From Amyelois transitella (taxonomy: Eukaryota > Arthropoda > Insecta > Lepidoptera > Pyralidae), in contig NC_083525.1 of the NCBI RefSeq assembly GCF_032362555.1, forward strand, positions 1,969,501-2,033,500: 64,000 nucleotides of DNA, written 5' to 3'. The first letter of the stretch is position 1; every line of letters begins with the position of its first letter. The position numbers and the translations under genes were made by a program. The notes beneath the pieces are model-generated. The model was not told the DNA's origin. It ran no database searches and was given only the letters and a program-made list of their open reading frames with translations. Positions 9,239 to 63,623 of the stretch are shown here, in pieces.

Positions 9239-9345
9239 CAATTTTATCATTAAGCCAAATAGCTGAACGTGGCCTTACAGTCTTTTCAAGACTGTTGGCT
9301 CTGTCTACCCCGCAAGGTATATAGACGTGATTATATGTATGTTCA
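9236..9345 (+). mobile_element. Rep-A 3' fragment
   Basis: A forward Rep-A from the TTGAATCTCAATTT segment to the GACGTGATTATATG end. Its (TATG)n tail leads directly into the minisatellite and may have seeded it. Confidence 0.65.
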
Positions 9346-9349
9346 AAAT

Positions 9350-9925
9350 AGTATACATTAATGTTGCGTTCTGTCCAACAGTTGATGAAGATTATATGTA
9401 GGTATGTATGTATGTTCAAAATAGTATACATTAATGTTGCGTTCTGTCCAACAGTTGATGAAGATTATATGTATGTATGTATGTTCAAAATAGTATACAT
9501 TAATGTTGCGTTCTGTCCAACAGTTGATGAAGATTATATGTATGTATGTATGGTCAAAATAGTATACATTAATGTTGCGTTCTGTCCAACAGTTGATGAA
9601 GATTATATGTATGTATGTATGTATGTATGTTCAAAATAGTATACATTAATGTTGCGTTCTGTCCAACAGTTGATGAAGATTATATGTATGTATGTATGTT
9701 CAAAATAGTATATATTAATGTTGCGTTCTGTCCAACAGTTGATGAAGATTATATGTATGTATGTATGTTCAAAATAGTATACATTAATGTTGCGTTCTGT
9801 CCAACAGTTGATGAAGATTATATGTATGTATGTATGTTCAAAATAGTATATATTAATGTTGCGTTCTGTCCAACTGTTGATGAAGATTATATTTATGTAT
9901 GTATGTTCAAAATAGTATACATTAG
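9350..9925 (+). repeat. Minisatellite of about 69-bp units, each a copy of a proline dehydrogenase 3' splice site
   Basis: Eight tandem units each carry ATTAATGTTGCGTTCTGTCC then AACAG then TTGATGAAGA, followed by (TATG)n and TTCAAAATAGTA. The AG positions end near 9381, 9454, 9523, 9592, 9669, 9738 and 9807; the eighth unit (near 9876) has CTG instead of CAG. A truncated ninth unit ends the array. The same intron end plus exon start occurs once more at 10182-10219, as the authentic acceptor. Most units are 69 bp, a multiple of three, so long repetitive ORFs appear across the array; I regard these as a by-product. Confidence 0.93.
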
Positions 9926-49734: not shown

Positions 49735-50640
49735 TTACCGTGTGGTTCCCGGCACCAATGAAACAAAGAATAGGTAATATAATACCACCCAATCTCGTTC
49801 CCATGGATGTCATAAAAGGCGATTAAGGGATTGGCTTATAAACTTGGAATTCTTCTTTTAGATGATGGGCTAGCAACCTGTCACTATTTGAATCTCAATT
49901 CTAACATTAAGCCAAACAGGTGAACGTGGCCTATCAGTCTTTTTAAGACTGTTAGCTTTGTCTATCCCACAAGGGATATAGACGTGACGTATGTATGTAT
50001 GTATGTTCATCAACAGTTTGTAATCTTATGGAAAACAGCTTTATGTTGCTTTGCCTAGTTTAAATAAGTAGTTAAAAATAAATTACTAACTAGAGAAACA
50101 TAGTTACGAGTGTCACATCATTTAATGGCGTGTTTTCTAAACTGAAGGACAGACCTATCTATGCAAAAGACTCTGATCAGCAAATGTTCTTGTTTGTCAC
50201 CTAATTGTATGGTGAATGATGAGCTAGCTAGTGTGACCTTAGTTTAAGATTTTCACGAATCAATTTCAATCAATTTCGTGTGCTCTTAGATTTTTTTTTA
50301 TTTTTATTTATTTTATTGGTTATTGTTACTTTAAGTTTTTTGACACTTGTGTAAAAAGAATTTACTTTAGCTTCCTGGTTTGTGTGCTATTTGATGCATC
50401 TTTTGTTATGTGATGACGCAAGTGCCCTTAGAATAGGACCTCTCTGATATCTTTTCTATAGATATCGCAAAAGGCGACTAAGGTTATACACTTGGGATTC
50501 CTCTTGTAGGCGATGGGCTAGGAACCTTTGAATCTCAATCCTATCATAAAGCCATACAGCTGAACGTGGTCTTTCAGTCTTTTGAGGACTGTTGGCTCTG
50601 TCTACCCCACAAGGTGAATATAGAGTTGACTATATGCTAA
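49735..50640 (+). mobile_element. Two forward Rep-A copies
   Basis: 49735-50005 is nearly complete. 50425-50640 is diverged and lacks the head. A further partial piece follows at about 50640-50730. A 3' fragment of the tRNA-like SINE (AATTTGTCCCGTATATATTT) is at 50745-50825. Confidence 0.6.
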
Positions 50641-51019
50641 TAAACTTGGGATTCTTCGTGTTGACGATGGGCTAGCAACCTGTCGTTTTTGAATCTCAAC
50701 TTCATCTAACTAAATGTGGTATTTTTAAGACTTGGAGTATGATGTTGTGTTAATATCTCACAAAACAAATCTCGAACTTACTTTAACTTAACCTGTGTAA
50801 TTTGTCCCGTATATATTTATTTATTATTTAATTCCATGTCATACTAGGAGGGCCGAGCCTACTTCAAAGTTTTCTTGTTGAACGACATGCAATTGATGCA
50901 GTATTTTCGAATATTAATCACACAAATTTTCTTTCGTTCGAATCCAAACAAATAAACAACGCCTCAATATGTATGTACAAAGTACAGGTATGAAATTAAG
51001 ATAAATTTAGTACCTAAGG

Positions 51020-51117
51020 GTCTATTTATATCGGAGCACACGTATTTAAAAACGTTTGGTCACCATAGCTCGACTACATTTAAAGACTCGAAAGAAACTG
51101 CCAATCTTACGAGAAAC
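51020..51117 (+). promoter_or_regulatory. Candidate promoter of P450 first exon 1
   Basis: TATTTAAAA at about 51043-51051 lies 65-75 bases before the start codon at 51118, a workable TATA distance for a short 5' UTR. TATTTATAT at 51022 is an alternative. Confidence 0.4.
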
Positions 51118-52489
51118 ATGATCGGAGCTGCACTTACTTTACTAATATTAATTTTTATCGTTTTATACAATGTGGCAAAATGGAAATTTGGGTATTGGAA
51201 GAAACGCGGTATACCGTATTTGGAACCCGTTCCCGTCTTAGGGAACTACGGGTCTTACATAATCCAGAGGGAGTACCTAGGACAATTAACACAACGGCTA
51301 TGTGACCAGTTCTCAAAATCACCGTATTTTGGAGTATTTTACGGTACTGAGCCAACTCTTATTGCGCATGAGCCAGAAATAATCAAAATTATAATGACTA
51401 AGGACTTTTATTACTTCAGTAGCCGAGAAATCTCCGATTACACCTACAAGGAAGTGATGACCCAAAACTTATTCTTCACTTACGGCGACAGATGGAAAGT
51501 GCTTCGGCAAAACTTAACACCTCTCTTTTCGTCATCCAAAATGAAGAACATGTTTTATTTAGTGGACAAATGTGCTCACGTTTTTGAAGATATGCTAAGT
51601 AACGAATTAAAAACGGATAATGTTCAGGAAGTGAGACCCCTAATGGCTAGATTTACTATGGATGTCATAGGGTCATGTGCATTTGGCATCGATACAAATA
51701 CTATGGCACGAAATTCAGAAACAAATCCTTTCACAAAAATTGGTTGTTTGATATTCTCAGAAACATTTTATAGAGGCTTCAAGATTGCAGCAAGAGCAAT
51801 TTGGCCCGCGCTATTTTACGGTCTTAAAATGAAAAGTTTCCCTACCGAAGCTGATGAATTCTTCAACAAACTGATGATGGGTGTGTTCGCAGGACGAAAA
51901 TATAAACCAACGAACAGAAACGATTTCGTCGATCTTATTCTGAATTGGAAGGAGAAGAACTACATAACTGGTGATAGTTTGCAGAATATGAAAGGAGATG
52001 ATAAGAAAGTAAATCTCGAAGTTGATGATGAGATCTTAGTGGGGCAATGTTTATTGTTTTTCGCTGCTGGATTTGAAACGTCATCTACAACGTTGCAGTA
52101 CACTTTGTATGAGCTTGCTAAGAATCCAGAGGCTCAGGAAAAGGTTATAAACGAAATAGACGAATATCTTCAACGTCGTAACAACAAACTTGTTTACGAG
52201 TGCATTACAGAGTTGCCGTATACTGAAGCCTGTTTTGATGAAGCCCTTCGTTTGTACCCGGTCCTTGGTGTGCTGACCCGGGAAGTGGTTGAAGACTACA
52301 CTATGCCATGTGGGGCGGTCATAGGGAAAGGGATTCGTGTACATATACCAGTGTATCATCTACATCATAATCCAGAGTTCTTTCCAAATCCAGAAGTGTT
52401 CAGACCTGAAAGATTTTATGGCGAAGAAAAACGGAACGTCAAACCTTTTACTTACATGCCATTTGGAGAAGGACCTCGCTTGTGTATTG
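51118..52489 (+). CDS. Cytochrome P450 (CYP3 clan), first exon 1 of cluster
   Basis: Heme-thiolate monooxygenase, expected in the ER membrane, of the CYP6-like insect clan that oxidises plant toxins, insecticides and other hydrophobic compounds. The exon encodes 457 codons plus one base. There is an N-terminal anchor (LTLLILIFIVLYNV), the hinge FGYWKKRGIPYLEPVPVLGN, WKVLRQ in helix C, AAGFET in helix I (Gly318, Glu320, Thr321), EALR in helix K, FRPERF, and the heme loop FGEGPRLCIG with Cys456. It ends in a consensus donor, G|GTAAGTTT, in phase 1. No terminal exon lies before the next P450 begins 305 bases later; the only compatible one is at 56144. If spliced there, the protein would have 521 residues, normal for the family. 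Without splicing the frame adds KFKLQKVITF and stops, removing about 60 C-terminal residues. The CYP subfamily is not assigned. Confidence 0.9.
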
Positions 52490-52747
52490 GTAAGTTTAAA
52501 TTACAAAAAGTAATTACTTTTTAAGGCGGGTTTTCTATTACATTACATGTTTACGGATTGACTTTAGAGTCAATATCAAGACATCGGCTTTACACAATTG
52601 CAGTTAATGTTGCATTAATATCTAACATACATATACGAGTATATAAGCCAGAGGCAAACGAACTTTAATCTTAAAGGGTCAAATAAATGATATAATAATT
52701 TATTGTTTTGATATTGAGGTCGTCAAAATAGGTAATCTTAAATGTAC

Positions 52748-52793
52748 TTATATAAAGCTTGTTTTCCGTCTTATCGTAATAAGTCTCACAAAT
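52748..52793 (+). promoter_or_regulatory. Candidate promoter of P450 first exon 2
   Basis: TATATAAAG at about 52750-52758 lies about 40 bases before the start codon at 52794. The interval 52490-52793 holds no terminal-exon remnant. An AATAAA at 52682-52687 could serve read-through transcripts of the preceding exon. Confidence 0.4.
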
Positions 52794-54165
52794 ATGATTG
52801 TTGAAGTGTTATTAATAGTAGTGGTCACTTTATTTTTCATTTTATACCATATTTCCAAAAGGAAATTTGGGTATTGGAAGGAACGCAATATACCGTACCT
52901 GGAACCCGTCCCGATTCTAGGCAACTACGGGCCTTTTATAATGCAGAGGAAGTATAATGGTAAAATGGCACAAGAATTATGTCAAAAGTTTCCAGACGAA
53001 CCGTATTTTGGAGTATTTTATGGTACGGAGCCGACCCTCATGGTACAGGATCCAGAAATGATCAAAACGGTCATGACTAAAGACTTCTATTACTTCAGTT
53101 GCCGGGAAATCTCCAACTACACCCACAGGGAAGTGTTCACTCAAAATTTGTTTTTCATTTGTGGACACAAGTGGAGAGTACTACGCCAAAACTTGACCCC
53201 TCTCTTCTCGTCCTCCAAAATGAAGAACATGTTTTACTTGATAGAAGAATGTGTTCAAGTGTTTGAAGGCATGTTAGATCGTGATATAAAAGTAAATAAT
53301 GTGCAAGGAGTGAGACATCTTATGGCAAGATTTACGATGGATTGCATTGGTTTGTGTGCATTTGGCATAGAAACTAAGACTATGGAACAAGACTCACGTA
53401 AAAATCCATTTACAAGCATTGCAGCTATAATGTTTATGGAGTCATACATAAGAGGCACTATGATTGTCGTCCGGGCTATTTGGCCAGCCTTATTTTACGG
53501 GTTAGGTATAAAACTTTTCCCCAAAATAGCTCTTAACTTTTTCAAGAAATTAATGAGGGGAGTATTTGAAGACCGCCAATACAAACCTACAAATAGAAAT
53601 GATTTTGTAGATTTGATCTTAAATTGGAAGAAAAATAACTTTATATCTGGAGATAGTTTGCAAAATATGAAAGGAGGTGAAAACAAAGTGAGATTGGAAA
53701 TTGATGATGAAATGCTAGTGTCGCAATGTATGTTGTTCTTCGCTGCTGGGTTTGAAACTTCATCTACGACTTTGCAGTACCTTTTGTATGAGCTTGCTAA
53801 AGACCGAAAGGCACAGCAAAAAGTCATAGGAGAAGTAGACGAATATCTTCAACTTCATAAAAATAAACTTGAATATGAGTGCACTACAGAGTTGCCGTTT
53901 ACTGAAGCCTGTATCGATGAAGCTCTTCGTTTATATCCGGCTGTTGGAATATTGACCAGGGAATTGGTTGAAGACTATACTCTGCCGTGTGGAGCTGTTA
54001 TAGGGAATGGAATCCGCGTGCATATACCAGTGTACCATTTACACCACAATCCGAAATTCTTCACTGATCCAGAGATGTTCAGACCTGAAAGATTTTATAA
54101 ACAAAAACGTGATGTAATACCCTATACCCATATTCCGTTTGGTGAGGGACCTCGGGCGTGTATAG
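52794..54165 (+). CDS. Cytochrome P450 (CYP3 clan), first exon 2 of cluster
   Basis: A close tandem relative of the exon at 51118, with the same length (457 codons plus one base) and intact landmarks: anchor VVTLFFILYHI, FGYWKERNIPYLEPVPILGN, WRVLRQ, AAGFET (Thr322), EALR, FRPERF and FGEGPRACIG with Cys456. It ends in donor G|GTGAGTAA in phase 1; unspliced, it would stop two codons later. The next P450 starts 264 bases downstream and no terminal exon lies between, so like its neighbour it depends on the exon at 56144 (521 residues if joined) or is truncated. No internal stop or frameshift is present, which argues against an old pseudogene. Confidence 0.9.
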
Positions 54166-54342
54166 GTGAGTAAAAAATTATTGAGAAGTTTGTGTACTTT
54201 GTCACTACTGTCACACACACACGAGTAGGTATGTATTATTTAACGACTAAGGAACATAGGATTTCTACAACCTAGAATCACGTAATATAGTGTATCCATG
54301 TTGAAATTCAATAAAAACGTAATCAGATTATTAAAGAGTCGA

Positions 54343-54429
54343 GGTCAACTTAATCTTATCTAAATTTTACATATAAATAGGGCAATTAAGTACGAGTACC
54401 TATATATCGCAATAAACATTTCCAAAACA
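54343..54429 (+). promoter_or_regulatory. Candidate promoter of P450 first exon 3
   Basis: TATAAATAG at 54372-54380 lies about 50 bases before the start codon at 54430. Just upstream, GAGGTCAACTTAATCTTAT resembles GAGGTCGTC...AATCTTA ahead of first exon 2, suggesting a conserved promoter block. Confidence 0.42.
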
Positions 54430-56337
54430 ATGATTGTCGAAATAACATTGTCTCTACTGATCATATTTTTAATTATTGTATATAACATATCCAAATGGAG
54501 ATTTGGGTATTGGAAGAAACGAAATGTACCCTTTTTGGAACCTGTCCCGGTTTTGGGGAACTATGGACCTTTTATCCTTTTTAAGAAGTTTATTGGGCTT
54601 GTTGCACAAGATTTGTGTCAGAAAATGCCAAACAAGCCTTATTTTGGCGTATTTTATGGCACGGAGCCAACCTTGATGGTACAGGATCCAGAGATGGTCA
54701 AAACAGTCCTGACGAAAGATTTCTACTACTTCAGCAGTCGTGAAATTTCCAAATACACACACAGAGAAGTGTTTAGTCAAAACTTATTCTTCACATATGG
54801 AGACAAATGGAAAGTGTACCGGCAAAATTTAACTCCTCTTTTTTCTTCATCTAAAATGAAAAAGATGTTCTACTTAATTGAAAAATGTGCTCATGTGTTC
54901 GAAAACATGTTAGATCATGAATTTAAGACAAATAATGTGCATGGAGTAAGGCATTTAATGGCAAGATATACCATGGATTGCATAGGATCATGTGCTTTTG
55001 GCATTAATACTAATACTATGGATCAAAACTCAACAAAAAATCCTTTTACAAACATCGGAGAGTTACTCTTTGAAGAGTCTTATATAAGAGGCATTCTCGT
55101 TAATCTAAGAGCTATATGGCCTGCAATATTTTACGGTATAGGACTGAGAAGTTTTCCCAAGCAAGTTGATGATTTCTTTAACCAATTAATGATGGGAGTG
55201 TTCAAAGAACGTAATTATAAACCCATAAATAGAAACGATTTCGTAGATCTAATTTTAAACTGGAATGTAGGTAATTATATTATTGGGGATAGTATAGAAA
55301 ACATGAAAGGCGGTGATAAAAAAGTGAAGCTGGAAGTAAATGATGAGATGTTAGTGTCACAATGTATGTTGTTTTTCGCTGCTGGGTTTGAAACGTCATC
55401 CACGACATTACAGTATACATTATATGAGCTCGCTAAGCATCCTGAAGCTCAGAAAAGAGTGATACAAGAAGTGGATGAATACCTCAAACGTCATGATAAC
55501 AAACTTGATTATGACTGTAATGCTGAGTTGCCTTTTACTGAAGCTTGTTTCGATGAAGCTCTTCGTTTGTACCCAGTTGTTAGTATATTGACTCGAGAAA
55601 CGGCTGATGAATATACTTTGCCGTGTGGAGCTGTCATAGAGAAAGGAATACGTGTTCATATACCCGTGTACCATATACATCATAACCCGGATTTCTTCCC
55701 TGACGTAGAGATGTTCCGTCCTGAGAGATTTTATGGTGAAGAAAATATAAAACCATATAGTTATATGCCATTTGGCGAGGGACCTAGGTTATGTATTGGT
55801 AAGTTGAAAGGGAATTAACCGACGCATGCGCTGGTTTATTATTGAGTTGATGTACAGTGTTTTTTCTGTTGATGACATTTATTAATTTAGTGTAAGCTTT
55901 TGTTTTCTCTCTCACAGAATTTGCTACACCAGCACTAAAACTATAATCTATCTACTTTCAAAAATAATGACTTGCATTCTTTCTCATCAATTACAGGCAA
56001 AAAGTGAACCAATAATAAATTAGGTGTCCTTTGCGATCGGGGCACACAACAATAACAAAATTGAAATAGAAGAGACAAATTTAATGGACTGGCAGATATT
56101 ACAATTTTAAACGTTAAAAATTAAATATTAAACACTATTTCAGGCATGCGCTTCGCAAAGATGCAGATGTTCTCCGGCATCATAACCCTGCTGAAGAAGT
56201 ACCAAGTGGAGCTAGCCGCAGACACTCCTCGCAAGCTGAACTTCAAATCCACCACCTTGGTCACCCAGCCGAAGGAGCTAATCAAACTGAAGTTTGTGGA
56301 GAGGGAAGGATGGGAAAAGAGAATGTTCAATAAATAA
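54430..56337 (+). CDS. Cytochrome P450 (CYP3 clan), first exon 3 plus terminal exon
   Basis: Exons 54430-55798 and 56144-56337 join in phase 1 across a 345-base GT-AG intron to give 520 residues, a full-length microsomal P450. Landmarks are the anchor LSLLIIFLIIVYNI, FGYWKKRNVPFLEPVPVLGN, WKVYRQ, AAGFET (Thr322), EALR, FRPERF, FGEGPRLCIG with Cys455, and then the terminal-exon part GMRFAKMQMFSG to WEKRMFNK. It is the only member of the forward cluster whose terminal exon lies directly downstream. AATAAA overlaps the stop (56329-56334). The general role is oxidation of small hydrophobic compounds; the specific substrate is unknown. Confidence 0.93.
56144..56337 (+). CDS. Single P450 terminal exon, candidate shared exon
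   Basis: The exon begins GCATGCGCTTCGC after TTTCAG and encodes GMRFAKMQM, then KYQVELA, then a C-terminal strand region ending MFNK. It completes the structural core behind the heme loop. It accepts phase 1, which all three upstream first exons donate. The homologous exon of the reverse P450 (59614-59418) starts GIRFAKMQM, showing that a separate terminal exon is the ancestral layout of this group. Confidence 0.9.
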
Positions 56338-56374
56338 TAATAATAGAAATTGCATTTAAGTTTATTTTATACTA

Positions 56375-56465
56375 GCTTCCCCCCGCGACTCCGTCCGCGC
56401 GGATATCGGTCTTCGCGTGGATGGTTTATTTCTCCATTTTGAGTAACTCTGACATAGGTGTAATA
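56375..56465 (+). repeat. Repeat of the CCCCGCGACTCCGTCCGCGC type
   Basis: A common-type AT/GC repeat beginning immediately after the P450 cluster. It merges with the left arm of the inverted repeat that follows. Confidence 0.45.
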
Positions 56466-59417: not shown

Positions 59418-61448
59418 TTATGAGACTGCGAATACGCGTTGTTGCCACCCTTCCCTCTGGACAAATTTCAGGGTTATCTTTTTGCTGGGCTGCGTGACCA
59501 CGGATGCTGCTGTGAACTCCAACTTCTTAGGCATGTCATCGGGCAACTCCATGCGATATCGCTTCAAGATCGTCATCAATGCCAGAATCATCTGCATCTT
59601 CGCGAAACGAATTCCTGTTGAAGGTATAGTTGACATATAAAAATCTTTATTTTTCTTTTTTTTCTGTTGTCTTTACCTAATTATCATCGTTAATACCCCG
59701 TGAAGACACAGGCTCCATGATCAAATCCAGGAGTGGGAAGCATAACGCCAAAAAGAAATAATTTATATGTATATGGGTTAGGGTTACTACATACAAAATT
59801 TAAATATACATGCATAATATCACGTCTATATCCCTTGTGGAGTAGACAGAACCAACAGTCTTAAAAATATCAAAAGGCCACGTTCAGATTCAGCTCTATG
59901 GCTTAGTTATGGAATTAAAATTCAAATAGTGACAGCTTGCTAGCCCACCGCTCACAAGAAGAACCCCAAGTTTAGTAGCCATTCTCTTAGTCGCCTTTTA
60001 CCACATCTACGGGCAGAAGATGGATTTGTCCTATAAGAGCCGGGAACCACACGGCAAAGCTAAAATTCATTAAATAAATAAGTATACACACCTATACAGT
60101 TCCGGGGACCTTCTCCAAATGCGAAATAAGTGTATGGAACGATCCTTTTTCTGTTCTCAGCCAGAAATCGTTCCGGTTTGAATTCTTCTGGACCAGGAAA
60201 ATAGCGAGGACTGTGATGTATATGATATGCAGGGATATGTATGCGTACTCCTTTGTCTAGAACAGCACCACACGGGAGACTGTAAGGATGGGTCACCTCA
60301 CGTTTTAAGATACCAACAATAGGGTACAATCTCATAGTTTCTTCAATACAAGCTTTCAAATAAGGCAGTTCTGTAAGACATTCTATATTTAGTTTATTGT
60401 CATGATTATTTAAAAACTCATTTATTTCTTGTACAACTTTATCTTGTACATCTGAGTGCTTTGCAATTTCGTATAAAACAAAAGAAAGTGTTGCTGATAC
60501 ACTTTCTAAACCGGTGCTTGATAATACCATACATTGTGCAAGTATCAATTGATCGCTCACTTTTATAATCGCTTTGTTATTACCTCCTTTTAAGTTATCA
60601 AATGAATCTCCAACTAATATTCTGTCCTTATTCATTTTTCTAAGCAAATCTGTAAAACTACACTTCTTCACTGAACTATTGGCATCAAACATATTCTGCA
60701 GGTAGTTTTGATAGAATTTTGGCACAACGTCTGGTAGATTTCTTAGGCCCATTGGATAGAAATATTTGGGATATACAGACCGGCCAATGTTTCTCATGCC
60801 TCTTCCATTTGTAGTTTCAAACATAATATCAAACAAACGAACAAACGGATTATTCCGCCAGTCTTTGTCTAAAGAGTTGATGTCTATGCCAAGCATACAG
60901 TTGCCTGTGCCATTTAATAAAAAGCGTAATAAACAACTTCTTACTTCAACACTGTCACTATTTATTTCTTCATGTAGCATTTTCTCAAATGAAACAGCGC
61001 TCTGTTTGAAGGTTTCAAACATAGTATTGATGTTAGAAGAAAATATGGGGCCGAAATGTTGTCTCAACACTTTCCACGTGTCTCCGGTAGCGAAAAATAA
61101 GCTTCCGAGGAAGGGATCCATGTTAGAGTATTCACTATTTTCTCGGCCGCTAAAGTAATAGAAGTCTTTACTTAAAACCAACTTGATCATAGCTGGATCT
61201 TGGATAATAAGTGTCGGGTTTGTCCCAAAGAAAACACCAATGTATGGAGCGAATGGATAGTGATTGCATAGCTGTTGAACTAATTCTCCTGAACACTGTT
61301 TTAACAAAATGTACGGGGCATAATTTCCGACCAAAGGCGAGGGTTTTATGTTAGGAACATTTCTCTTTTCCCAATAATCTAAATTTTTTATCGACAAATG
61401 ATATAGATAATAAACAAGAAGAACTATTGTTAGGAATATTGCAATCAT
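59418..61448 (-). CDS. Cytochrome P450 (CYP3 clan), reverse strand, complete
   Basis: Exons 61448-60092 and 59614-59418 join in phase 1 across a 477-base intron to give 517 residues. It has an anchor (FLTIVLLVYYLYHL), DYWEKRNVPNIKPSPLVGN, WKVLRQ in helix C, ETMR in helix K, FKPERF, FGEGPRNCIG with Cys451, and terminal part GIRFAKMQMI to WQQRVFAVS. It is clearly related to the forward cluster but more distant. The helix-I signature is altered: STGLESVSAT replaces AAGFETSST, so the usual threonine is Ser316 after Glu315 and the preceding alanine is a threonine. It is tail-to-tail with the forward cluster and keeps its own terminal exon. Confidence 0.93.
59808..60058 (-). mobile_element. Rep-A copy in the P450 intron
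   Basis: A reverse-orientation, diverged full copy (AATATCACGTCTATATCCCT to GAGCCGGGAACCACACGGC). It occupies half of the intron and stops about 30 bases from the donor at 60091. Confidence 0.65.
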
Positions 61449-62249: not shown

Positions 62250-63623
62250 ATGAGTCGAAATATTTTCGGACATAGAATTAATAGTCAGTGCAAACAAATG
62301 GCGTTTAACGTATATGAATATTTTAGAAAAAAGAAACTCGACCCAAATTCTGATGAATATAAACAAGATATACCTTTAAATAAAACTGTAGCAGAAGTTA
62401 CTGGACTATCAGAAAAGACTGTATCTAGAATTGTACAACAAGGGAAAGCATTAAATGACAACGAGAGATTTAAATCACCGAGAAAACCAAAACAGGTTCG
62501 TAGAAAAAGAGTGGAAATAGACGATTTCACAAAAGGAGTGGTAAGAAGAAAAGTCACTCAGTTTTACACAATTTTCAAAAAAATACCTACTCTGAAAACT
62601 TTGAACGCTGTACTTAGAGAAGAGAATATATTACACTGCGGCAGGGAATATTTAAGGCTATTATTACATGATCTAGGTTTTAAATTTAAGAAATGCGGAT
62701 CTAAAAGGAAACTCCTTATCGAACAGCCAAATATCACATCGTGGAGGTGGAAATACCTAAATACTATTAAAAAATATCGTAGAGAAGGAAGACATATTTT
62801 ATACCTTGACGAAACTTATGTAAACGCGTCTCATAACGTTTCAAAATGTTGGCAATCAAAGGATGAACTTGGCGTTCTATCTCATATTGGTAAAGGGGAC
62901 CGTTTGATCATCGTACATTGTGGAGGTCAAATTGGATTTGTAGACGGAGCCCTTGTGATATTCAAATCCAAATGTAAAACAGGTGATTATCACGATTCTA
63001 TGAATTTCGCAAATTTCAGTAAATGGATAAATGAAAAGCTCATGCCTAATATACCGCAAAATTCTGTCATAGTAATGGACAACGCAGCTTATCATTCGGT
63101 TCGAGAAGAGAAAAAGCCAACTATGGCTTCTACCAAGCCAACTATGCAAGAATGGCTACGACGACATAACGTGCCTTTTGATGAAAAACTTAGAAAGGAT
63201 GACTTATATAAATTAATTAAAAGTAATTTCACAGAAGATATTTACAAAATTGACGAGGTATTGAAAAGAAACGGACACGAAGTATTGCGTTTGCCTCCAT
63301 ATCACCCAGACCTGAACCCAATTGAGTTGGTCTGGGGTGATATCAAAGGACAATTAGCACAAAAAAGTATCGACTCTAATTTGGACCAGAAAAAAGAAAT
63401 ATTAGAGAGATTATTTGCTGAATATCCCAAAGAGAAATGGGAGAATTGTGTTAAACACGTGATTAAAATCGAAGACGAATATTGCAAACATGATGGAGTC
63501 CTAGATGAAGTTGTTGATTTTATTATTAATGTGCAAGACGATTCTGATGATTCTGATGATGGCTGTTGTGAAAGTGAAGAATCAAGTTCCAGTGATAGTG
63601 ATATTATGGACATAAGTGATTGA
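62250..63623 (+). CDS. DDE transposase, intact
   Basis: 457 residues, uninterrupted. The N-terminal part has a helix-turn-helix (KTVAEVTGLSEKTVSRIVQQ, about 44-63) and a second basic DNA-binding region (SPRKPKQVRRKRVEID). The catalytic triad is visible: Asp187 in LYLDETYVN, Asp277 in VIVMDNAAYHS and Glu359 in PYHPDLNPIELVWGDIK. There are 81 residues between the second Asp and the Glu, far more than the 34-41 of ordinary Tc1/mariner families, because of an inserted segment with KKPTMASTKPTMQEWL and a helical stretch. This long spacing recalls the DD82E (Sailor-type) group described for this superfamily; that link is from memory. The C-terminal tail is acidic and serine-rich. An intact frame suggests a young or still mobile copy. 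Confidence 0.92.
   Translation: MSRNIFGHRINSQCKQMAFNVYEYFRKKKLDPNSDEYKQDIPLNKTVAEVTGLSEKTVSRIVQQGKALNDNERFKSPRKPKQVRRKRVEIDDFTKGVVRRKVTQFYTIFKKIPTLKTLNAVLREENILHCGREYLRLLLHDLGFKFKKCGSKRKLLIEQPNITSWRWKYLNTIKKYRREGRHILYLDETYVNASHNVSKCWQSKDELGVLSHIGKGDRLIIVHCGGQIGFVDGALVIFKSKCKTGDYHDSMNFANFSKWINEKLMPNIPQNSVIVMDNAAYHSVREEKKPTMASTKPTMQEWLRRHNVPFDEKLRKDDLYKLIKSNFTEDIYKIDEVLKRNGHEVLRLPPYHPDLNPIELVWGDIKGQLAQKSIDSNLDQKKEILERLFAEYPKEKWENCVKHVIKIEDEYCKHDGVLDEVVDFIINVQDDSDDSDDGCCESEESSSSDSDIMDISD

What the first reader, a model, noticed from the sequence alone, without database searches (positions are those of the whole stretch)
51118..56337. Three P450 first exons in tandem share a single terminal exon
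Each of three exons (51118-52489, 52794-54165, 54430-55798) encodes a P450 from the start codon to the heme cysteine and ends in an intact phase-1 donor. Only one terminal exon exists (56144-56337). The 305- and 264-base gaps between the copies hold no terminal exon or remnant. None of the exons has a stop or frameshift. This is the layout of a variable-first-exon locus such as vertebrate UGT1A, which I do not know to be described for lepidopteran P450s. The alternative is that two copies arose by duplication without the last exon and make truncated proteins. Either case is unusual.
Basis: partly seen in the sequence, partly recalled or inferred. Interest (0 to 1): 0.88.

Follow-up and report, generated by a model that had tools for sequence, protein, structure and literature searches.

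The report
Three moth P450s share one ending
In a moth genome, three detoxification-enzyme starts in a row appear to share one common end piece, so one locus could make three different enzymes; database gene models suggest relatives do the same, a layout familiar from a human drug-clearing gene but apparently little noticed for insect P450s.

Summary
Three intact P450 first exons (51118-52489, 52794-54165, 54430-55798) precede one terminal exon (56144-56337); each joined to it gives an unbroken 520-521 aa P450. Searches found no terminal exon or remnant in the 304- and 264-base gaps. The window is Amyelois transitella (navel orangeworm): NCBI's 'cytochrome P450 6B2' (P0003) equals copy 2 spliced over copy 3 to the shared exon. 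In Plodia interpunctella three RefSeq proteins tagged isoform X1, X2, X3 have different first parts (69-84% identical) and an identical 64-residue ending; Spodoptera litura and S. frugiperda show the same signature. The copies are old (dS 1.15-1.74) and conserved (omega 0.10-0.17). Best reading: a UGT1A-like variable-first-exon locus in the CYP6AE group, one promoter per first exon, cis-splicing to the shared exon. Splicing of copies 1 and 3 in Amyelois is inferred: none of 149 held proteins shows it, and no RNA was available. Against: stronger-looking acceptors lie in the last intron, and an Ephestia protein seems to read through its donor. The layout is a known kind; within P450s it looks like a new variant. 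Ten limited paper searches showed no description.

The parts
51118..52489 (+). variable first exon, copy 1 (457 codons to Cys-Ile, ends phase 1, donor GTAAGT)
   Evidence: groups with Plodia isoform X3
52490..52793 (+). gap 1 (304 nt): no terminal exon found; TATA box TATATAAA at 52749, 45 nt before the copy 2 ATG; AATAAA at 52682 (not above chance)
52794..54165 (+). variable first exon, copy 2 (donor GTGAGT); joined to 56144-56337 it equals NCBI protein P0003
54166..54429 (+). gap 2 (264 nt): no terminal exon found; TATA box TATAAATA at 54372, 58 nt before the copy 3 ATG; AATAAA at 54310 and 54411 (not above chance)
54430..55798 (+). variable first exon, copy 3 (456 codons to Cys-Ile, donor GTAAGT)
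55799..56143 (+). last intron (345 nt), with two stronger-looking 3' splice sites (exon starts 55918, 55997) besides the coding one
   Evidence: crude untrained score
56144..56337 (+). shared terminal exon (64 residues incl. the split Gly codon, stop at 56335-56337)
59418..61448 (-). neighbouring complete two-exon P450 (517 aa; exon 1 61448-60092, exon 2 from 59614), showing the ordinary layout; not part of the array
   Evidence: end computed from the 517 aa

Best explanation
This is one P450 locus of the CYP6AE group (insect xenobiotic-metabolising P450s) organised as a variable-first-exon array. Shown: three intact first exons, each encoding a P450 from its start to the heme cysteine, and a single terminal exon for the last 64 residues. 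Shown from database models only: copy 2 joined over copy 3 to that exon, and three Plodia proteins with one ending. Inferred: each first exon has its own promoter (TATA boxes 45 and 58 nt before the ATG of copies 2 and 3; only TATA-like motifs for copy 1). A transcript started at any of them has one consensus donor, at its heme end, and cis-splices to the shared exon, removing downstream first exons as intron. The array probably arose by duplication of promoter plus first exon without the second exon. The outcome would be three enzymes with different substrate pockets and one common C-terminus, each switched by its own promoter.
For: P0003 (Amyelois, NCBI) is identical to copy 2 + 56144-56337. 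Plodia proteins tagged isoform X1/X2/X3 (P0006, P0005, P0004) have identical 64-residue endings and first parts 69.4-83.6% identical. Of 5671 pairs among 107 held proteins with both parts, 5 have an identical ending with first parts under 85%, and all 5 are within one species: 3 Plodia, 1 S. litura (X4/X5), 1 S. frugiperda. Copy 1 groups with Plodia X3 (97/94; 87/95). omega is 0.10-0.17 over the first exons with dS 1.15-1.74; pN in the last 60 codons is 0.099, 0.091 and 0.152 against 0.155-0.169 overall. Donors are consensus in all three. The main P450 motifs are kept, with one Pro lost in copy 3. Branch lengths of copies 1-3 (0.15, 0.27, 0.20) lie in the range of the complete relatives P0007, P0009 and P0010 (0.09-0.29).
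Against: No held protein joins copy 1 or copy 3 to the shared exon, whereas a fully used array predicts three models. NCBI models are automatic; whether RNA reads supported them, and that X1-X3 are one gene, was not seen. By a crude untrained score the acceptor at 56144 ranks 11 of 218 AG sites; above it are two in the same intron (55918, 55997), whose use would truncate the protein, and one just before copy 3 (54381, rank 7, inside its TATA box) that could catch upstream donors. Copy 1 has no TATAWAW match, and such matches are not rare by chance upstream of copies 2 and 3 (23-37% of shuffles). AATAAA in both gaps would allow early ends, though 46-51% of shuffles have it too. A deposited Ephestia protein (P0008, CYP6AE165) ends 23 residues after the heme, apparently by reading through its donor (inferred, no DNA seen), so truncated forms may exist in relatives. 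31 unnamed Logan proteins also end shortly after the heme; if these contigs are RNA, they too would point that way.
Confidence: 0.8

Rival explanations
1. Only copy 3 (or copies 2 and 3) makes a full P450; copy 1 (or 1 and 2) are orphan duplicates that end in the gap and make proteins without the last 64 residues, perhaps with another role or none.
For: Read-through gives short tails of 11, 2 and 6 residues; AATAAA in both gaps; no held protein of copy 1 or copy 3 with the shared exon; Ephestia P0008 apparently reads through its donor.
Against: Copy 2 is annotated as joined to the shared exon. Purifying selection with old divergence, heme-end codons included; consensus phase-1 donors kept in all copies. 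A P450 without the stretch after the heme cysteine is not expected to fold as an enzyme (recalled knowledge).
Confidence: 0.1
2. Assembly artefact: terminal exons of copies 1 and 2 exist but were lost when similar units were collapsed.
For: Tandem copies about 70% alike in protein; raw reads could not be seen.
Against: The copies are only 73-75% identical in DNA, too diverged for easy collapse; the identical-ending signature is present in Plodia, another species.
Confidence: 0.04
3. The identical endings in relatives come from gene conversion between separate two-exon genes, so they do not support exon sharing; the Amyelois layout is then an isolated loss.
For: Plodia P0007, named without an isoform tag, has an ending 96.8% identical to the X1-X3 ending with first parts 69-71% identical. 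The two terminal exons of the window are GC3-rich (0.72 and 0.68 against 0.32-0.39 in the first exons), as conversion with GC bias might leave. Plodia X1 is named 6B5-like but X2 and X3 6B2-like.
Against: Consecutive isoform tags in Plodia (X1-X3) and S. litura (X4, X5) normally mean one gene; endings there are 100% identical; in the Amyelois window there is only one exon to share.
Confidence: 0.08
4. Trans-splicing of separate pre-mRNAs rather than cis-splicing from three promoters.
For: Trans-splicing occurs in Lepidoptera, e.g. mod(mdg4)-like loci, with the opposite layout of common 5' exons (PMC4667647, passages).
Against: All parts lie on one strand within 5.2 kb in splicing order, so cis-splicing suffices.
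Confidence: 0.03

Closest known systems
Vertebrate UGT1A locus
   Same: Tandem first exons with their own promoters join common 3' exons; detoxification enzymes (described in a passage of PMC9209448; that the first exon holds the substrate-binding part is recalled).
   Different: Different enzyme superfamily; [quoted passage not shown] here one common exon of 64 codons and three first exons holding about 88% of the protein.
CYP6AE clusters of Lepidoptera (H. armigera, Bombyx)
   Same: Same P450 group; cluster of nine genes in H. armigera (PMC6240031, start of abstract, passages); 8 of the 9 Bombyx mandarina CYP6AE entries with an exon number have 2 exons (PMC7866900, passages).
   Different: No exon sharing is mentioned in what I saw; 'exon', 'splic' and 'intron' have no occurrence in the held main text of PMC6240031.
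Plodia interpunctella RefSeq P450 isoforms X1-X3
   Same: Three first parts, one identical 64-residue ending; the direct counterpart.
   Different: Only protein models were seen, not the DNA or the gene record.
Drosophila Cyp4d1 alternative first exons; human CYP3A and CYP2C chimeric mRNAs (recalled, no call)
   Same: P450 transcripts with alternative first exons or joined across neighbouring genes.
   Different: As recalled, short alternative first exons or rare chimeric by-products between complete genes, not an array with a single terminal exon.

Membership tests
Cytochrome P450, CYP6AE group | p450 domain and motifs (WxxxR, AGxxT, ExxR, PERF, heme FxxGxRxCxG) | tested here: met
   copy 3 fails the strict PxxFxPERF pattern (Val for the first Pro), PERF itself present
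Cytochrome P450, CYP6AE group | closest named relatives are CYP6AE | tested here: inconclusive
   copy 3 is 66% identical to Ephestia CYP6AE165 and 56% to Bombyx CYP6AE7; copies group with CYP6AE165; no formal CYP name assigned, RefSeq names are 6B2/6B5
Variable-first-exon locus (UGT1A-like) | several homologous first exons in tandem on one strand, each with start codon and donor of the same phase | tested here: met
Variable-first-exon locus (UGT1A-like) | a single set of common 3' exon(s), none between the first exons | tested here: met
Variable-first-exon locus (UGT1A-like) | a promoter before each first exon | tested here: inconclusive
   TATAWAW before copies 2 and 3, none before copy 1; chance rate 23-37% for copies 2 and 3
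Variable-first-exon locus (UGT1A-like) | mature transcripts from each first exon joined to the common exon | tested here: inconclusive
   annotated for copy 2; nothing for copies 1 and 3; no RNA data
Variable-first-exon locus (UGT1A-like) | first exons kept by selection | tested here: met
   omega 0.10-0.17, pairwise between copies, dS near saturation

The most novel reading that the evidence does not exclude
Exon sharing is a recurrent, selected architecture of lepidopteran CYP6AE-type loci: one GC-rich terminal exon acts as a constant region for arrays of variable first exons that gain and lose members, arisen at least twice (Pyralidae and Noctuidae), so that a considerable part of moth detoxification P450s are alternative products of few genes rather than separate genes.
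Probability: 0.4. Interest if true: 0.8.

Novelty: new variant of a known kind. Interest (0 to 1): 0.66.

Why it matters
P450 counts, names and qPCR or RNAi designs usually treat each copy as a gene of its own. Here one deletion in a 194-base exon would remove three enzymes, and a probe in that exon would measure their sum. Pipelines that keep one protein per gene hide such loci: PMC7866900 kept only the longest CDS per gene (passage). A duplication that needs only promoter plus first exon is a cheaper route to new enzymes than copying a whole gene, which bears on how moths expand detoxification genes.

Tried and rejected
Remnant terminal exons in the gaps: none found. AATAAA as evidence for early ends: at chance level, 46% and 51% of shuffles in the two gaps. 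CncC/Maf-type sites: one match in 50601-56400, inside copy 1, none in the promoter stretches. Gap-to-gap or gap-to-intron homology to date the duplications: nothing with E under 0.08. Monophyly of the three Amyelois copies or of the three Plodia isoforms: disfavoured but not rejected (AU p 0.059 and 0.064); all six as one clade, and copies 2/3 with X1/X2, not rejected (p 0.446 and 0.345). So an array older than the Amyelois-Plodia split rests on copy 1 with X3 only. Pairwise dN/dS averages over both lineages. The acceptor score uses weights set by hand from recalled consensus and was not calibrated.

Papers: ten searches listed no description of shared terminal exons in insect P450s. They are limited: searches returned nothing; some searches listed 25 of 1,633, 30 of 59, 12 of 14 and 5 of 8,284 papers; one search was about UGTs and about human-type chimeras; most subscription journals are not held. 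Two more papers opened by passages gave nothing (PMC3272025; PMC7079503).

The protein searches were capped: the best 120 of 1447 hits, 42 of 42 and 35 of 35 were listed. One search missed the Plodia proteins, whose ending is 78% identical, so it is not sensitive to diverged endings; an identical ending should have been found.

Full report
What is there. Three exons of 1372, 1372 and 1369 nt begin with ATG, hold no stop and end one base after the Cys-Ile codons of the heme loop, before consensus donors GTAAGT, GTGAGT and GTAAGT; 56144-56337 follows a CAG acceptor and ends in TAA. Joined in silico the products are 521, 521 and 520 aa. Pfam p450 covers profile positions 3/4-412 in the first exons and 413-461 in the terminal exon. 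All three carry WxxxR, AGFETSS, EALR, PERF and FGEGPRxCIG; copy 3 has Val instead of the first Pro of PxxFxPERF.

Only one terminal exon serves them. In the window the terminal-exon protein matches itself and one minus-strand exon at 59615-59430 with E below 2; the latter belongs to a complete two-exon P450 of 517 aa. The gaps of 304 and 264 nt and the last intron show no remnant by permissive tblastn or blastn, while the same blastn detects the diverged minus-strand exon.

Where it comes from. NCBI protein P0003, 'cytochrome P450 6B2 [Amyelois transitella]', equals copy 2 plus the shared exon, residue for residue. P0003 skips copy 3, the nearer first exon, as a variable-first-exon locus predicts. 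A search with the terminal part of P0003 returned 42 proteins from 54 candidates; P0003 alone is identical to the query. Copies 1 and 3 joined to the shared exon are in none of the 149 held proteins: their best matches are 77.1% (P0004) and 71% (P0003, P0004, P0005), apart from the read-through ORF P0087.

Relatives. Plodia interpunctella (also Phycitinae) has three RefSeq proteins tagged isoform X1 (6B5-like), X2 and X3 (6B2-like), listed with one contig length. Their 64-residue endings are identical; the first parts are 69.4% (X1/X3), 72.4% (X2/X3) and 83.6% (X1/X2) identical. That they are one gene is inferred from the tags; the gene record was not seen, nor the evidence behind the models. 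Spodoptera litura (Noctuidae) X4 and X5 share 66 residues with first parts 77.5% identical; S. frugiperda P0127 (X3) and P0126 (a UniRef entry without isoform tag) share 66 with first parts 60% identical. These 5 pairs are all that have an identical ending and first parts under 85% among 5671 pairs of 107 proteins; 42 of 149 held proteins were left out of that count, 34 for a short tail and 8 for no motif match. The held proteins are the listed matches of three capped searches, so the count is no census.

History. In a 36-row tree (32 held proteins chosen by me, 4 window exons) copy 1 pairs with Plodia X3 (97/94), copies 2 and 3 pair (99/97), X1 and X2 pair (100/100), and the Spodoptera proteins lie in a separate 9-row noctuoid clade (100/100). 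In an 18-row tree the support of copy 1 + X3 falls to 87/95 and that of copies 2+3 to 91/96. Species-wise monophyly is disfavoured, not rejected (p 0.059, 0.064). I infer that an array with at least two types existed before the split, with later gains in each line; the noctuid arrays look independent. Plodia P0007 has a nearly identical ending (96.8%) without an isoform tag, a hint of conversion or recent copying of the terminal exon.

Selection. Pairwise dS is 1.15, 1.74 and 1.28 and omega 0.167, 0.104 and 0.135 (copies 1/2, 1/3, 2/3). In the last 60 codons pN is 0.099, 0.091 and 0.152 against 0.169, 0.161 and 0.155 overall, so the heme end is kept at least as well as the rest. These codons matter only if a terminal exon follows, which argues that all three are joined to it. 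Branch lengths of the copies are ordinary.

Working. TATA boxes lie 45 and 58 nt before the ATGs of copies 2 and 3; copy 1 has only weaker look-alikes; matches are frequent by chance. A transcript from any promoter meets its own donor and then, past any downstream copy, the coding acceptor. Against a simple picture, a crude hand-set score ranks 56144 only 11 of 218 AG sites: 55918 and 55997 in the same intron rank first and second, and 54381, inside the TATA box of copy 3, ranks seventh; the best site close before copy 2 ranks 35. Splicing of copy 3 to 55918 or 55997 would end the protein in EFATPALKL or GKK. If used, these would be a switch-off route.

Known or new. The layout matches UGT1A as described in PMC9209448 (passages), which also cites alternative exon use in Bombyx UGT46A. 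In PMC7866900 (passages) 8 of 9 Bombyx mandarina CYP6AE entries with an exon number have 2 exons, and only the longest CDS per gene was kept. In the passages seen, the papers on the H. armigera cluster (PMC6240031), navel orangeworm P450s (PMC7822513), S. frugiperda (PMC5613006) and S. exigua (PMC7379962) do not mention it. Ten searches, with the limits told under Tried and rejected, listed no report. I rate it a new variant of a known kind.

Noticed in passing
55918 and 55997: Two 3' splice-site-like sequences with pyrimidine-rich tracts in the last intron score above the coding acceptor 56144 (crude score); possible decoy or regulated non-productive splicing.
   Followed up: partly
56144-56337 and 59430-59614: Terminal exons have GC3 0.72 and 0.68, first exons 0.32-0.39; may reflect GC-biased gene conversion of terminal exons.
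   Followed up: partly
59418-61448 (minus): Neighbouring complete P450 (517 aa) lacks the I-helix AGxxT motif (reads STGLES) but keeps ExxR, PERF and the heme loop; possibly an unusual or decaying enzyme.
   Followed up: no
62253-63620 (plus): Open transposase-like ORF with a DDE_3 domain just beyond the P450s.
   Followed up: no
9334-9924: Tandem array, period 69 nt, 8.4 copies, 94% matches.
   Followed up: no
P0001, Leptidea sinapis protein: A 729 aa model fuses two P450 first parts and ends in the short tail GKFISI; may mark tandem first exons without terminal exons in a butterfly.
   Followed up: no
P0038 (Ostrinia nubilalis) and P0058 (O. furnacalis isoform X1): Endings 98.4% identical with first parts only 75.9% identical between congeners; may be a further shared-exon locus.
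   Followed up: no
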